64,000 bases of DNA from Methanosarcina sp. MTP4 (lineage in GTDB: Archaea; Halobacteriota; Methanosarcinia; Methanosarcinales; Methanosarcinaceae). Below the pieces are notes generated by a model. That model had not been told where the DNA came from. It worked only from the letters and a program-made list of their open reading frames with translations, and did not search any database. Shown piece by piece: positions 24,493 to 54,089 of the stretch. Every line of letters begins with the position of its first letter. Positions within the stretch are counted from its first letter, which is position 1. Both the position numbers and the translations under genes were made by a program. The stretch covers positions 2,814,808 through 2,878,807 of the forward strand of contig NZ_CP009505.1 in the NCBI RefSeq assembly GCF_000970045.1. The letters run 5' to 3'.

Positions 24493-25857
24493 TTATTTGT
24501 TGACCACCACGGTCTTGATGTTCACGAACTCCTTGAGCCCGTAGTGGGAAAGTTCCCTTCCTACCCCGGACTTCTTGATCCCGCCGAAGGGCAGCCTGGG
24601 ATCGGACTTGACCATCCCGTTGACCACGACGAAGCCGGACTTTATGCGCTTTGCAAGCCGCTCTGCCCGTTCCGGGTCCCCTGACCAGATAGTGCCCCCC
24701 AGCCCGAACTCGGTGGAGTTTGCGACTTCCACGGCTTCGTTCTCGTCTTTGACCATGATAACCGGCGCAATCGGCCCGAAGATTTCCAGGCTGCAGACCT
24801 TCATGTCGGTGCTGGCAGCCGGGACAAGTGCAGGCCTGAAGAAAAAGCCCTTCTGGTGCTCTTGCCCATGGATTTTTGGCCTGGAACCTTTCTTTTCCGC
24901 GTCTTTCAGGACCTTTTCAAGCTCCCCCACAAATACCTTTTTCGCGACAGGCCCGATGTCGGTCTCCGGGTCCATGGGGTCCCCGACCTTGAGCTGCTGC
25001 ATATATTCGTCAAACTTCTCGGAAAACTCCACGACCACGTCTTCTATAATGATAAAGCGCTTTGCAGCAATACAGCTTTGCCCGGCATTGATAAAGCGAG
25101 CTTTTACCGCCATCTGCGCAGCCGCGTCCACGTCCGCGTCCTCGAGCACGATGAAGGGGTCGGACCCCCCTAGTTCCAGCACAAGCGGCTTGATCTTCTT
25201 TCCCGCAAGCTCTCCTACCGCAGACCCGGCTGCAACGCTTCCGGTCAGCGAGACCCCGTCCACAAGCCCGCAGTCAATCATCTTCATCGCAGTCTTCGAG
25301 TCGATCAGCAGCGTCTTAAACACGTTATCAGGCAGTCCCGCCTCCAGAAAGACCTTCTGGATCTCCAGTGCCGACCCCGGCACGTTCGAAGCATGCTTGA
25401 GCAAACAGACGTTTCCCGCAGCCAGCGCCGGCACCACAAAGCGAAACACCTGCCAGAACGGGAAGTTCCAGGGCATGATCCCGAAAATGACTCCAAGCGG
25501 CTCGAAGCTGATGTAGCTCTTCTCAGCCTCCGTTTCCACAACCTCGTCCTTCAAAAAGCCAGCCGCGTTCTCCGCATAATACTCGCAGGCCCAGGCACAT
25601 TTCTCAATCTCGGACAGGGACTCCCGGATAGGCTTTCCCATCTCCTTTGTTATGACCTCGGCATAAACCCGTTTGTTTTGCCTGAGCACGCCTGCAGCCC
25701 GGGCGATGTACCTGACCCTCTCCTCCACCGAAAGGGTACTCCAGCCCTCAAAAGCAGCCCTTGACAGTTCTATTTGCTGCTGGCAGTCTTTGAAAGAAAG
25801 CGGGTCGTAGGTCCAGTTGAGTTCTTCAGTATAAGGATTAACGGATTTGATTTTCAG
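24493..25857 (-). CDS. succinate-semialdehyde dehydrogenase (Sad/YneI-like aldehyde dehydrogenase), non-standard start
   Basis: The protein has 454 residues from a CTG at 25857, close to the usual 460 for this family. Homology to aldehyde dehydrogenases begins at once (KIKSVNPYTEEL...FEGWSTLSVEERVRYI), yet none of the first 43 codons is ATG, GTG or TTG; the first is GTG at 25728. GGGGGG lies 7 bases before the CTG. MPWNFPFWQV, LVLELGGSDPFIV (catalytic Glu near 230) and NAGQSCIAAKRF (catalytic Cys near 263) are intact, and LPFGGIKKSGVGRELSHYGL closes the protein. The match is to the Sad/YneI group, which oxidises succinate semialdehyde to succinate. It is upstream of the ThDP-enzyme gene on the same strand. 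Confidence 0.88.
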   Translation of the reverse strand: MKIKSVNPYTEELNWTYDPLSFKDCQQQIELSRAAFEGWSTLSVEERVRYIARAAGVLRQNKRVYAEVITKEMGKPIRESLSEIEKCAWACEYYAENAAGFLKDEVVETEAEKSYISFEPLGVIFGIMPWNFPFWQVFRFVVPALAAGNVCLLKHASNVPGSALEIQKVFLEAGLPDNVFKTLLIDSKTAMKMIDCGLVDGVSLTGSVAAGSAVGELAGKKIKPLVLELGGSDPFIVLEDADVDAAAQMAVKARFINAGQSCIAAKRFIIIEDVVVEFSEKFDEYMQQLKVGDPMDPETDIGPVAKKVFVGELEKVLKDAEKKGSRPKIHGQEHQKGFFFRPALVPAASTDMKVCSLEIFGPIAPVIMVKDENEAVEVANSTEFGLGGTIWSGDPERAERLAKRIKSGFVVVNGMVKSDPRLPFGGIKKSGVGRELSHYGLKEFVNIKTVVVNK

Positions 25858-42885: not shown

Positions 42886-43806
42886 CTACTTTTCAAGCCC
42901 CTGAATATACTCATTTGCAGCCGTAGCAGCCACCGCCCCGTCGCTTACGGCTGTCACTAGCTGCCAGATAGGAGTGTCCCGGCAGTCTCCTATAGCATAG
43001 ATTCCTTTCTCCGAACTTTCCATCCAGCGGCCTGTTTTGATGAAACCTTTCGGATCTTTTTCTACATCCACGATTTCTGTGTTAGGGTGGATACCGATGT
43101 AGATGAAAACGCCGTTTGTGAGAAGTTCCCTGGTCTCCCCGGTCTTCACGTTTTCCAGGATGACCTTTTCCACTTTCCGGATTTCGGTTCCGGTTCCCAC
43201 GATTTCCTGGACAAGGGAGTCCCAGATGAACTCAATGTTTGCCGCCGCAAAAGCTCGGTCCCGGAGGACTTTTACAGCCTTCAGTTCATCCCGGCGGTGG
43301 ACGACATAAACTTTTTCCACGAGCTTAGAGAGGATCAGGGCATCCGTAAGGGCGGAATCCCCCCCTCCGACCACAACCACGGTTTTATTCCTGAAAAAAG
43401 GCCCGTCACAGGTGGCACAGTAGGAAACTCCTTTGGCAATCAGTTCCTCTTCCCCGGGCACGCCCAGGTGTTTCGGGTTGGCCCCGGTAGCAATGATCAC
43501 GGCTTTTGCCTCAAGGTCCCCGCTGTCTGTCGAGACAAGCTTTTTCTCTCCTTCGGAACGGACCGTCAGGACATCCGTGATTTTAGTCTCCACACCGACT
43601 GCAAGAGCATGTTCTTTGTACTTCTCCATCAATTCAAAGCCCGTGATAGAAGGAAAACCGGGATAATTTTCCACAACATCAGTAAGGGCTATCTGCCCGC
43701 TGATTTCACTTCTTTCCAGGACGAGCGTCTCCAACCCGAACCTCACGCCATAAATTCCCGCAGTAAGCCCTGCAGGCCCTCCTCCAACAATAACCAGATC
43801 GTACAT
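42886..43806 (-). CDS. trxB: thioredoxin reductase
   Basis: The protein has 306 residues, the usual length of low-molecular-weight thioredoxin reductases. FAD motif VGGGPAGLTAG is at 7-17, the redox-active Cys130-Ala-Thr-Cys133 is in SYCATCDGPF, the second dinucleotide-binding motif is VVVGGGDSALTDA, and GIYAIGDCRDTP closes the FAD domain. It reduces thioredoxin, probably the one encoded just upstream at 43968-44210; in methanogens the electron donor may be NADPH or F420H2 and is not decided by the motifs. The GGGG before the ATG serves as ribosome-binding site. Confidence 0.93.
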   Translation of the reverse strand: MYDLVIVGGGPAGLTAGIYGVRFGLETLVLERSEISGQIALTDVVENYPGFPSITGFELMEKYKEHALAVGVETKITDVLTVRSEGEKKLVSTDSGDLEAKAVIIATGANPKHLGVPGEEELIAKGVSYCATCDGPFFRNKTVVVVGGGDSALTDALILSKLVEKVYVVHRRDELKAVKVLRDRAFAAANIEFIWDSLVQEIVGTGTEIRKVEKVILENVKTGETRELLTNGVFIYIGIHPNTEIVDVEKDPKGFIKTGRWMESSEKGIYAIGDCRDTPIWQLVTAVSDGAVAATAANEYIQGLEK

Positions 43807-43838
43807 GTTTACCCCATAAAAAAATAAATGAAAGCTTG

Positions 43839-43883
43839 GCCGATAAAACGCTAGCCGATAAAACGCTAGCCGATAAAACGCTA
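43839..43883. repeat. 15-bp tandem repeat, 3 copies
   Basis: gccgataaaacgcta is exactly repeated three times between trx and trxB, followed by a degenerate copy. If the genes are cotranscribed it lies in the intercistronic leader of trxB. Confidence 0.88.
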
Positions 43884-43967
43884 GCCGATGAAATGTTAAG
43901 GTGACTAAGGCGATTGAACCAGCTAATGAAATGTTAAGGTGATACAGGAACGTTCGATACAGGATAT

Positions 43968-44210
43968 TCAGGTAATGCGGGCGATAGCCTCGGCTTTTTT
44001 AGGAAGTCCTGCAAAAGCAAGTTCCCCATCGATAATGGTTGCGGGGATCCCAACTATACCGAATTTCTCGACCAGTTCTTCTCCCTCGGGCGTTTCCACA
44101 TCTATTTCCTCGTACTCAAAATCGTATTTTGATTTAAGATCATTCCAGAGCCTGCGTGCGGATGGGCAGACCGTACACCAGCTAGCGTGTATAAGCGTGA
44201 CTTTGACCAT
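43968..44210 (-). CDS. small thioredoxin-fold protein
   Basis: The protein has 80 residues, a minimal thioredoxin/glutaredoxin fold. Active-site Cys12-Thr-Val-Cys15 is in SWCTVCPSA, the cis-Pro is in GIVGIPATIIDG, and the C-terminal helix is short. Small proteins of this type in methanogens serve as thioredoxins. Its location upstream of trxB on the same strand suggests that the two are a redox pair. GGGAG lies 8 bases before the ATG. Confidence 0.88.
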   Translation of the reverse strand: MVKVTLIHASWCTVCPSARRLWNDLKSKYDFEYEEIDVETPEGEELVEKFGIVGIPATIIDGELAFAGLPKKAEAIARIT

Positions 44211-51372: not shown

Positions 51373-51613
51373 CACCCCCCAGATGCACTGTTAGTTAATA
51401 TTTTTTGCCTCAGGCCTAGAACGTTTAAAGACCAAAAATTTCAAGAGGCGAAACCATAAAAAGTAGCATTGTTTTAAATATGTACATAGCACATGGAAAT
51501 TCTATATATTTAACAGAGACTTATTTTAATACTAAAGGATATATGCCATAATTAGTTAGTATGTAGCAACCAATAACCATAAACCCCTAATGATCTAAAA
51601 AAGAGGAATAGAT
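51373..51613. promoter_or_regulatory. divergent promoter region, aroK and phoU
   Basis: AT-rich sequence with attctatatatttaacagag near 51499-51518 and ggatatatgccataatt near 51538-51554, suitable as TATA regions for the rightward gene. No ORF was seen. Confidence 0.4.
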
Positions 51614-52609
51614 ATAGAGACAAGGAAAGTTCAACAGACCGGCGGGTCCACATATATAATTTCCTTACCCAAACCATGGGCCGAAAAGGTAGGGATCAAG
51701 ACCGGAGTGCGGGTTTCTATCCAGACCCAGCCTGACGGGAAACTGGTAATCGACCCTATCCTTGAAGGCCGCACGATTAAAACGAAAAGGATTGATGTCA
51801 CCGGCTGTGAAGGGCAGGCCCTGGAAAGAGACATTATTGCCGCCTATATCTACGGATACGACAAAATGGAGTTCGTATCGAAACGGATTCTTTCCGAACA
51901 GAAGCAGATCATCCGAAAAGTCTGCTATAAACTGATAGGCCCTGAAATCATTGAAGAGAGTTCAAACTGCCTGGTCATCCAGGATCTCCTGAACCCCAAC
52001 GAACTCCCAATCAAGAAAGGGATACACCGGATGTACCTGATCTCAAGTTCCATGCAAAAGGATGCAATAAGGGCACTCAAAACCATTGACCACGACCTGG
52101 CCCTTGATGTCAGCCTCAGGGACGACGAGGTTGACAGGCTGTATCTCCTGATCTCAAAACAATTCAGGTCTGTCCTCTGCGGCTCGAAGATACCTTATCC
52201 TTCGGAAACAAGTATCGAGGAATACCACGACTTCAGGATGGCGGCAAGTCCCCTGGAGCGTATAGGGGACCACTCCCAGAGGATAGCAAACGTTGCCTCA
52301 AAACTGGAAACTCCCATTCAATCCGATGTGATGGGAGGAGTAGAGGACCTCAGCGTCGCTTCAATGGAACTCGTCAAACAGGCAATTGACGCTCTTTTTA
52401 ACGCGGACACGGCCCTTGCAAACAGGGTAATAGACAGCGACGGAATCCTCCGTGACCAGGCAAAAGACCTGGATGCATCCATCCTCAAACTCGAATCCCA
52501 TGAAACCATGGTCTACCTCAGAACGGTTGTGGACAGTCTCACCAGGATAGGGGACTACGGCAAGAACATAGCCGAAATAGCCATAAATTCCGCAATCAAC
52601 AGCAAGTAA
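51614..52609 (+). CDS. phoU: PhoU-family phosphate regulator with AbrB-like N-terminus, non-standard start
   Basis: The protein has 331 residues if it starts at the ATA at 51614. Only then is the N-terminal AbrB/SpoVT-like domain whole (ETRKVQQTGGSTYIISLPKPWAEKVGIKTG). The first ATG, GTG or TTG in frame is GTG at 51707, which would cut that domain in half. GAGG at 51603-51606 lies about 7 bases before the ATA. Two PhoU helical bundles follow (FRMAASPLERIGDHSQRIANVA and LRTVVDSLTRIGDYGKNIAEIA, each with the E/D-R-IGD metal-binding motif). Archaeal proteins of this design regulate phosphate uptake; no Pst transporter genes are in the window. Confidence 0.88.
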   Translation: METRKVQQTGGSTYIISLPKPWAEKVGIKTGVRVSIQTQPDGKLVIDPILEGRTIKTKRIDVTGCEGQALERDIIAAYIYGYDKMEFVSKRILSEQKQIIRKVCYKLIGPEIIEESSNCLVIQDLLNPNELPIKKGIHRMYLISSSMQKDAIRALKTIDHDLALDVSLRDDEVDRLYLLISKQFRSVLCGSKIPYPSETSIEEYHDFRMAASPLERIGDHSQRIANVASKLETPIQSDVMGGVEDLSVASMELVKQAIDALFNADTALANRVIDSDGILRDQAKDLDASILKLESHETMVYLRTVVDSLTRIGDYGKNIAEIAINSAINSK

Positions 52610-53082: not shown

Positions 53083-53724
53083 ATGAGTATGATAAAACGA
53101 TTTAAGATAAGCTTTTCAAGAATATTTGACAAATTGTTCAAGAAAAAGGGCGCATGCATAGGAATTTACGGACCCCCCAATGCCGGCAAAACGACCCTTA
53201 GCAATAGAATCCTCCGGGACTGGGTAGGAAACGAAGAAACCATGGGTTCGGTGTCCCACATCGCACACGAAACAAGGCACGCAAAACGCCGTAATGAGGT
53301 TTCCATAGAATCTAAAGGGCATACGATCAGCCTGGATATCGTGGACACCCCCGGACTTGCGACAAAAATAGATTTCCATGACTTCATGGGACAGGGGATG
53401 AGTGATTCCGAATCGAAGAAGAGGTCCAAGGAAGCAACGGAAGGTGTTATCGAAGCAGTAAAGTGGCTCGAAGACCTGGACGGCGTGATCCTTGTTATGG
53501 ACTCCACGGAAAACCCGTACACACAGGTCAATGTCACGGTAATCGGAAATATGGAAGCCAGGAACCTTCCGCTCCTTATCGTTGCAAATAAGGTAGACCT
53601 TCCGGAAGCTGACCCGGGAGTCATAAAGGAAGCTTTCCCCCAGCACCCAATGGTACCGATTTCAGCCCTTGACGGAGTCGGGATGGACTCTTTTTACGAA
53701 GCTCTGGCAAAACAGTTCGGGTGA
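53083..53724 (+). CDS. Era-like small GTP-binding protein
   Basis: The protein has 213 residues. G1 is GIYGPPNAGKTTLSN (P-loop), G3 is DIVDTPGL, G4 is VANKVDL and G5 is PISALDG. The N-terminus is basic and hydrophobic (MIKRFKISFSRIFDKLFKKKG), perhaps for membrane or RNA contact. In euryarchaea a GTPase of this type is encoded beside DUF2073, as here, with the genes overlapping by 4 bp, so the two probably act together. The cellular role is unknown. Confidence 0.88.
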   Translation: MSMIKRFKISFSRIFDKLFKKKGACIGIYGPPNAGKTTLSNRILRDWVGNEETMGSVSHIAHETRHAKRRNEVSIESKGHTISLDIVDTPGLATKIDFHDFMGQGMSDSESKKRSKEATEGVIEAVKWLEDLDGVILVMDSTENPYTQVNVTVIGNMEARNLPLLIVANKVDLPEADPGVIKEAFPQHPMVPISALDGVGMDSFYEALAKQFG

Positions 53725-54089
53725 TCGATATGCAGGGAATTCAAATGGACCTTATATCCGAAGCCAAGATTTCCCAGATGGCTTCGATGGAAAAAGTCCG
53801 CTACATAATCGACGAAGTAAGAAAGGGAAAAATCCTCGTGCTTGAAAAAGGCTTAAACCCGATGGAGGAAGCAAAGCTCATTGAAGTGACAATGTCTGCT
53901 ATCCAGCCAGATGAGTTTTCAGGCATCGAGATGCAAAGCTATCCCTCAAATGGGGAAGCCTCCATCCTTGGTAAGATCTTCAAAAAACAGGGTAATAAAA
54001 GGCTTACAGTGATAGGCCCTGCAAACCAGCTCAAGACCCTCAAGAAGGACCGGAATCTGATCAGTGCACTTGTCTCTGCAAGTAAATAA
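53721..54089 (+). CDS. DUF2073 protein
   Basis: The protein has up to 122 residues from a GTG overlapping the GTPase stop codon (GTGA); an ATG at 53730 is the alternative. GIQMDLISEAKISQMASMEKVRYIIDEVRKGKILVLEKGLNPMEEAKLIE is typical of the archaeal DUF2073 family. It has an alpha/beta composition with no catalytic motif. Translational coupling with the Era-like GTPase suggests that it is a partner or effector of it. Confidence 0.85.
   Translation: MIDMQGIQMDLISEAKISQMASMEKVRYIIDEVRKGKILVLEKGLNPMEEAKLIEVTMSAIQPDEFSGIEMQSYPSNGEASILGKIFKKQGNKRLTVIGPANQLKTLKKDRNLISALVSASK

What the first reader, a model, noticed from the sequence alone, without database searches (positions are those of the whole stretch)
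51603..51709. PhoU-type regulator apparently starting at ATA
The AbrB-like domain (ETRKVQQTGGSTYIISLPKPWAEKVG) is complete only if translation begins at the ATA at 51614, with GAGG about 7 bases before it. The first standard in-frame start, GTG at 51707, would remove half of that domain. Together with the CTG case at 25857, two of about sixty genes here seem to use non-standard starts, which may point to a general relaxed start-site choice or to leader-controlled expression.
Basis: partly seen in the sequence, partly recalled or inferred. Interest (0 to 1): 0.5.

Follow-up and report, generated by a model that had tools for sequence, protein, structure and literature searches.

The report
Conserved AUA start codon, archaeal regulator
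A DNA-binding, PhoU-type regulator gene of a methane-producing archaeon appears to begin translation at the weak codon AUA instead of AUG, and most relatives in the same archaeal family keep AUA or AUC there and AUU, AUA or AUC in a sister gene, which suggests that a weak start is a built-in brake on how much regulator is made.

Summary
The frame with an intact AbrB/MazE-PhoU protein has no ATG/GTG/TTG between its upstream stop (51596-51598) and ATA 51614, 7 nt after GAGG. Of 111 family genomes (named relatives: Methanosarcinaceae), 94 hold the gene; the aligned first codon is ATA 71, ATC 15, ATG 8, others 0. In 61 of the 86 non-ATG cases no canonical start lies in frame before it. A paralogue is less uniform: ATT 42, ATA 14, ATC 10, ATG 10 in 76 loci read of 81. 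Of 18 loci read in other families of the order, 17 start canonically.

So this is neither a private oddity nor general start-site relaxation. The CTG case at 25857 is GTG in a sister genome, and no comparable AUH case appeared among window ORFs covered by sister genomes.

Best reading: SD-guided initiation by ordinary Met-tRNAi at a mismatched AUH codon, kept to hold regulator levels low. Bacterial counterparts are infC, pcnB and S. aureus ccpN and cvfC1. The initiation site is well supported; the purpose is inferred. Three sister genomes have lost the gene.

The parts
51614..52609 (+). CDS of AbrB/MazE-PhoU regulator, 331 codons plus TAA, starting at ATA
   Evidence: orthologues
51614..51616 (+). 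ATA start codon
   Evidence: aligned codon is ATA/ATC in 86 of 94 orthologues
51603..51606 (+). Shine-Dalgarno core GAGG, 7 nt before ATA
   Evidence: 16S-type 3' end GGATCACCTCCT found three times in the genome; spacing 7-10 nt in 86 of 86 non-ATG orthologues
51596..51598 (+). in-frame TAA that closes the frame upstream
51632..51760 (+). AbrB/MazE DNA-binding domain (residues 7-49)
   Evidence: Pfam PF04014
52022..52291 (+). best of two PhoU domain matches (residues 137-226)
   Evidence: Pfam PF01895
51707..51709 (+). first standard in-frame start (GTG); would remove most of the AbrB domain
51502..51508 (+). CTATATA box, promoter or possible operator element
   Evidence: within 150 nt upstream in 65 of 94 main-line genes and 38 of 50 paralogue loci, against 16 of 310 control ORFs
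53083..53724 (+). Era-like GTPase, conserved downstream neighbour
   Evidence: Pfam; found in 60 of 63 named loci
53721..54089 (+). OapB/PF09846 protein, conserved downstream neighbour
   Evidence: found in 57 of 63 named loci

Best explanation
Translation of this AbrB-PhoU regulator starts at AUA 51614. Shown by sequence: a Shine-Dalgarno element at normal distance, no in-frame AUG/GUG/UUG before it in most non-AUG orthologues, and an AUA/AUC state kept through most of the family, with AUU/AUA/AUC in most copies of a paralogue. Inferred: the SD duplex places the codon in the P site, ordinary initiator tRNA (CAU) accepts it with a third-position mismatch at low efficiency, and the protein starts with Met. 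Inferred: selection keeps the weak start because it holds the amount of a DNA-binding regulator low, possibly making it sensitive to initiation conditions or factors.
For: 86 of 94 orthologues have ATA/ATC at the aligned first codon, and in 61 of these 86 no ATG/GTG/TTG lies between the in-frame stop and that codon. In G075 a TAA stop directly precedes the ATA. The first canonical start downstream lies at codon 25 or later in 78 of 86 (list). The SD-to-start distance takes values 7, 8, 9 and 10, so the spacer is not held in frame. Residues 2-20 show synonymous change with conserved amino acids. ATT is absent at codon 0, while 17 other conserved Ile columns use ATT 468 times of 1401; changes on the tree are 5 against 13-27. 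In the paralogue 66 of 76 loci read are non-AUG, 44 of the 66 with no canonical codon up to the in-frame stop. The genome's two initiator-type tRNAs have anticodon CAU, and no TAT anticodon was found among the tRNA hits. Precedent: S. aureus ccpN AUA and cvfC1 AUU starts, with extended SD, gave about 10% of AUG reporter expression in poor medium, ccpN up to 30% in rich medium (PMC13009471, passages).
Against: There is no protein or ribosome data. In 20 of 86 orthologues a canonical codon lies within 9 codons upstream, 11 of them ATG at codon -2 (in or against the SD), so those species might use it. Low change is not unique to codon 1: Q7 changes 4 times and K5 7 times. For the window copy the duplex program preferred another stretch (-5.8 kcal/mol) over GAGG. 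The gene is missing at E 1e-70 in 17 of 111 family genomes (10 of 85 good ones), and three sister genomes keep only pieces, so it is dispensable. AUG occurs in 8 of 94 main-line genes, and in 10 of 76 paralogue loci: all five Methanohalophilus-type loci read, four Methanolobus-type and one Methanosarcina-type. The low-dosage purpose rests on analogy.
Confidence: 0.77

Rival explanations
1. Start-codon loss: the ATA is an early step of pseudogene decay in this genome.
For: Three same-genus genomes keep only remnants at the same place, with internal deletions.
Against: The ATA/ATC state is shared by 86 of 94 orthologues in 11 of 13 genus codes, isolates included. The window copy is a full 331-codon frame without stops, and its branch (0.22) lies within the range of intact relatives.
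Confidence: 0.03
2. The real start is a canonical codon downstream (GTG 51707 here), giving a PhoU-only protein without a complete AbrB domain.
For: Default ORF calling gives this (likewise a shortened frame in L076 and L052).
Against: 15 of the first 30 columns are invariant in a 15-sequence alignment, with synonymous codon change. The downstream canonical codon differs between species (index 5 to 120). The SD lies before ATA.
Confidence: 0.03
3. Translation starts two codons earlier, at the codon -2 ATN (ATA 51608 here), and ATA 51614 is internal.
For: Codon -2 is ATN in 80 of 86 rows, ATG in 11.
Against: Codon -2 begins inside or directly after the SD core, too close for normal spacing. It is TCA, GTA or GTT in 6 of 86. 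Codon -1 is a TAA stop in G075. The ATN can be accounted for by extended pairing with the 16S end (inference).
Confidence: 0.07
4. Programmed frameshifting from an upstream out-of-frame ATG supplies the start.
For: 37 of 86 rows have an ATG-started frame reading over position 0 in another frame, including ATGAGGGAT in many Methanolobus-type loci.
Against: 49 of 86 have none. Slippery sites were not searched for.
Confidence: 0.03
5. A dedicated initiator tRNA or A-to-I editing of the mRNA turns AUA into a normal start.
For: None found; AUA alone would fit editing to AUI.
Against: AUC and AUU alternate with AUA in the same gene lines and are not explained by A-to-I editing. No TAT-anticodon tRNA among the tRNA hits; the GAT tRNAs are tRNA-Ile by ARAGORN, and both initiator-type tRNAs read CAU.
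Confidence: 0.02

Closest known systems
S. aureus / B. subtilis ccpN (AUA in S. aureus), S. aureus cvfC1 (AUU) and infC (AUA)
   Same: Conserved non-NUG start with strong extended SD; ccpN is a transcription repressor; weak start lowers expression (PMC13009471, passages).
   Different: Bacterial, with IF3 as the fidelity factor. Here archaeal (aIF1/aIF1A/aIF2), unrelated protein, two paralogous lines, and the codon drifts among AUA, AUC and AUU.
E. coli infC and pcnB AUU starts
   Same: AUU start codon in E. coli (PMC4245954, passages); for pcnB an inefficient start limits expression (title in the reference list of PMC13009471).
   Different: Bacterial; infC is thought to be autoregulated through its own product IF3 (passage). 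I know of no translation role for AbrB-PhoU.
Archaeal AbrB/MazE-PhoU proteins of other lineages (other families of the order, Lokiarchaeota, Thermoplasmata)
   Same: Same N-terminal motif and homologous full length.
   Different: 17 of 18 loci read in other families of the order start canonically, and all 12 loci read from outside the order have ATG or GTG near the N-terminus.
Aldehyde dehydrogenase with CTG at 25857 in this window
   Same: Non-standard start with a G-rich SD before it.
   Different: Sister genome G002 has GTG: a lineage-specific change.

Membership tests
AbrB/MazE-PhoU regulator | N-terminal MazE/AbrB domain over Pfam cut-off | tested here: met
   43.5 bits against cut-off 24.7, residues 7-49, only with the ATA start
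AbrB/MazE-PhoU regulator | C-terminal PhoU domain over Pfam cut-off | tested here: met
   97.5 bits against 23.5, two stretches
PhoU phosphate-signalling equivalog (TIGR02135) | score over NCBIfam cut-off 130.25 | tested here: not met
   68.4 bits: a relative, not filed as this equivalog
Genes with conserved non-canonical (AUA/AUU/AUC) start | no usable NUG start at the conserved N-terminus | tested here: met
   61 of 86 non-ATG orthologues have none in frame before it; the window copy is one of them
Genes with conserved non-canonical (AUA/AUU/AUC) start | strong or extended SD at proper spacing | tested here: met
   GG core 7-10 nt before the start in 86 of 86, mean duplex -8.75 kcal/mol; the window copy itself has only GAGG, and its best computed duplex is elsewhere
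Genes with conserved non-canonical (AUA/AUU/AUC) start | conservation across genera | tested here: met
   ATA or ATC in 11 of 13 genus codes; g10 and g11 have only ATG
Genes with conserved non-canonical (AUA/AUU/AUC) start | start codon lowers expression relative to AUG | not testable with these tools
   needs a reporter assay

The most novel reading that the evidence does not exclude
In Methanosarcinaceae a regulator family, in two paralogous lines, is kept under a weak-start brake, so that its synthesis reads the stringency of archaeal start-codon selection (for instance aIF1 or Met-tRNAi supply). This would be an archaeal counterpart of IF3-dependent control, perhaps layered on autoregulation through the CTATATA box found before many members of both lines.
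Probability: 0.18. Interest if true: 0.8.

Novelty: new variant of a known kind. Interest (0 to 1): 0.62.

Why it matters
It gives a phylogenetically deep archaeal case of genes kept on AUA/AUC/AUU starts, in a family with genetically tractable members (recalled), so start-codon stringency in archaea could be tested on a natural gene. It also means that gene callers which allow only ATG/GTG/TTG will cut part of the DNA-binding domain off these regulators, as the default ORF list does here.

Tried and rejected
Pseudogene decay was my first alternative after finding remnants in the same-genus genomes; it was dropped when distant orthologues showed the same ATA. A private sequencing error was rejected: the state occurs in independent isolates and assemblies. 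Downstream start, codon -2 start, frameshift, special initiator tRNA and editing were weighed as listed under rivals. Genome-wide relaxed start choice was tested with three sister genomes over the covered part of the window. That control could not include the finding gene itself (lost in the sisters) or the part of the window without sister contigs. An SD strength comparison with ordinary genes was not made; only 86 non-ATG against 8 ATG orthologues (-8.75 against -6.5 kcal/mol), which are not independent. No structure was predicted. Literature: searches listed no paper that I could recognise, from titles, abstracts and the passages I opened, as reporting a conserved AUA/AUC/AUU start in archaea. 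The library is open-access only, and supplementary tables could not be read, among them those of the M. mazei Ribo-seq paper (PMC11456600, passages), which could contain this gene. They raised its ATG count from 1 of 50 to 10 of 76, and I lowered the best explanation from 0.78 to 0.77 and the novel case from 0.20 to 0.18 for that reason.

Full report
What is there. The frame of the gene is closed upstream by TAA 51596-51598 and holds no ATG, GTG or TTG before GTG 51707. From ATA 51614 it encodes 331 residues with an AbrB/MazE domain (7-49) and PhoU (two stretches, best 137-226); from GTG 51707 the AbrB match disappears. GAGG (51603-51606) stands 7 nt before the ATA. The genome has three copies of GGATCACCTCCT, as expected for 16S 3' ends.

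Orthologues. In a search of 111 genomes of the family, 94 hold a match at E 1e-70 or better (75 of 85 genomes at least 90% complete and at most 5% contaminated). I read the start region of all 94 (on loci). The codon aligned with ATA 51614 is ATA in 71, ATC in 15, ATG in 8, and no other codon occurs. Eleven genus codes hold ATA or ATC; g10 and g11 hold only ATG. There 63 loci are Methanosarcinaceae relatives: ATA 49, ATC 8, ATG 6. They include isolates without any canonical codon in frame upstream, such as Methanolobus vulcani PL 12/M, Methanolobus bombayensis DSM 7082, Methanolobus halotolerans SY-01 and Methanosalsum natronophilum AME2. The two collections overlap and must not be added.

No alternative start. 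In 61 of the 86 non-ATG rows no canonical codon lies between the in-frame stop and position 0. In 42 the stop lies within 6 codons, and in G075 it is the codon directly before ATA. In 20 rows a canonical codon lies within 9 codons upstream; 11 of these are ATG at codon -2, inside or against the SD core, so use of these in their species is not excluded. The first canonical codon downstream differs between species and lies at codon 25 or later in 78 of 86. The distance from SD core to start is 7, 8, 9 or 10 nt in 53, 4, 22 and 7 rows, so the spacer is not kept in frame, as expected of non-coding sequence.

Selection on the codon. Seventeen other columns of the protein are at least 90% isoleucine; they use ATA 539, ATT 468 and ATC 394 times, while position 0 never uses ATT. 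On a tree of 97 rows, with 85 non-AUG rows counted, codon states change 5 times at position 0 and 13 to 27 times (mean 19.7) at those 17 columns. Against this: some other early codons also change little (Q7 4, K5 7), so part of the restraint may be general to the start of the gene. AUG against non-AUG needs 3 changes on the tree including the outgroup. They fit a change between the ATG outgroup and the family, a return to ATG in the clade of g10 and g11 (Methanofrustulum and Methanimicrococcus by the named set), and a return in two Methanococcoides-type rows nested among ATC rows. The count alone does not give direction.

The paralogue. The genome's second AbrB-PhoU gene (G000:C1:3382631-3383638, 33% identical over the match) has relatives in 66 of 111 family genomes, 81 matches in all. 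I read 76 of the 81; four are fragments without the N-terminus and one is cut at a contig edge. The start is ATT 42, ATA 14, ATC 10, ATG 10 (50 loci, 26). One of the ten ATG rows, L352, has ATT directly before the ATG. The ATG rows are all five Methanohalophilus-type loci read, four Methanolobus-type and one Methanosarcina-type. Of the 66 non-AUG loci, 44 have no canonical codon up to the in-frame stop (33 of 49, 11 of 17). In the first 49 a G-rich core stands 8-11 nt before the start. One-base length differences between SD and start (L207 against L208, L250 against L252) again show a non-coding spacer. In the window's genome a GTG lies further upstream in frame, but it is missing in same-genus G001.

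Controls. In 15 genomes from other families of the order, 14 hold 19 AbrB-PhoU loci. I read 18: 17 canonical, 1 ATC (G032). The latter groups with two family members in the tree of 53 paralogue rows (support 93), perhaps by transfer. Twelve loci from outside the order all have ATG or GTG near the N-terminus. A third AbrB-PhoU type in two family genomes starts at ATG, and seven PhoU-only genes start at ATG (6) or GTG (1), by eye. In the window, 37 ORFs show synonymous excess against sister genomes. Three meet my flag for coding-type conservation upstream of the first canonical start, and all three are antisense to another listed ORF. The aldehyde dehydrogenase (24493-25998, minus strand) aligns upstream of its GTG but does not meet the flag (3 synonymous, 5 nonsynonymous). 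ORF 42886-43998 also aligns somewhat upstream of its first ATG, with more nonsynonymous (11) than synonymous (3) change. The CTG at 25857 is GTG in G002.

Initiator tRNA. Of 54 tRNA hits in the genome (150 of 211 candidates scored), ARAGORN with and without introns names the anticodons. Two identical tRNA-Met genes of initiator type (A1-U72 and GGG/CCC anticodon stem, recalled criteria) read CAU. No TAT anticodon appears; the GAT tRNAs are named tRNA-Ile by ARAGORN.

Mechanism. Shown: a conserved SD, a mostly conserved AUH codon at normal spacing, and no in-frame alternative in 61 of 86 rows. Inferred: Met-tRNAi initiates with a mismatch at the third position and low efficiency, helped by the SD. 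In S. aureus, ccpN (AUA) and cvfC1 (AUU) have conserved non-canonical starts with extended SD; about 10% of AUG expression was measured in poor medium, and up to 30% for ccpN in rich medium (PMC13009471, passages). In archaea aIF1 is reported to destabilise initiation complexes on a non-AUG mRNA (PMC6237735, passages). The review PMC4611024 (passages) lists AUU, AUC and AUA among bacterial start triplets and describes IF3 discrimination. A low dose of regulator is the simplest purpose. Dependence on initiation factors is possible and untested.

Surroundings. A match to the Era-like GTPase lies near the gene in 60 of 63 named loci and one to the OapB-family protein in 57 of 63. A CTATATA box lies within 150 nt upstream in 65 of 94 main-line genes and 38 of the first 50 paralogue loci, against 16 of 310 ATG ORFs of 150 aa or more in the same loci. 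That control includes operon-internal genes and antisense ORFs, and only 1 of 22 g8 (Methanosarcina) main-line genes has the box. Three same-genus genomes keep only pieces of the gene; in G003 the stretch matching window 51460-52483, start included, is gone.

Novelty. Conserved non-NUG starts are known in bacteria. I found no report of such a conserved case in archaea in the searches named under Tried and rejected; that is a statement about those searches only. Hence: new variant of a known kind.

Noticed in passing
24493-25857, minus strand: Aldehyde dehydrogenase gene seems to start at CTG 25857 after GGGGG; sister genome G002 has GTG at the same place.
   Followed up: partly
L046, L047, L048 (G001, G002, G003): The regulator gene is lost in three same-genus genomes, leaving pieces of coding sequence at the same site between flanks 86-97% identical.
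   Followed up: partly
51502-51508 and upstream regions of orthologues and paralogues: A CTATATA box, often part of TCTATATAGA in the paralogue, is enriched before AbrB-PhoU genes of both lines; a TATA box or an autoregulatory operator.
   Followed up: partly
53083-54089: The regulator sits near an Era-like GTPase and an OapB-family (origin-associated) protein in nearly all named relatives.
   Followed up: partly
L334 (G032, another family of the order): A paralogue copy with ATC start outside the family, grouping with two family members; possible transfer that carried the weak start along.
   Followed up: partly
L258, L356, L357, L360, L362; L363, L364, L365, L368: The paralogue uses ATG in all Methanohalophilus-type loci read and in a few Methanolobus-type ones, so the weak start has been given up several times.
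   Followed up: no
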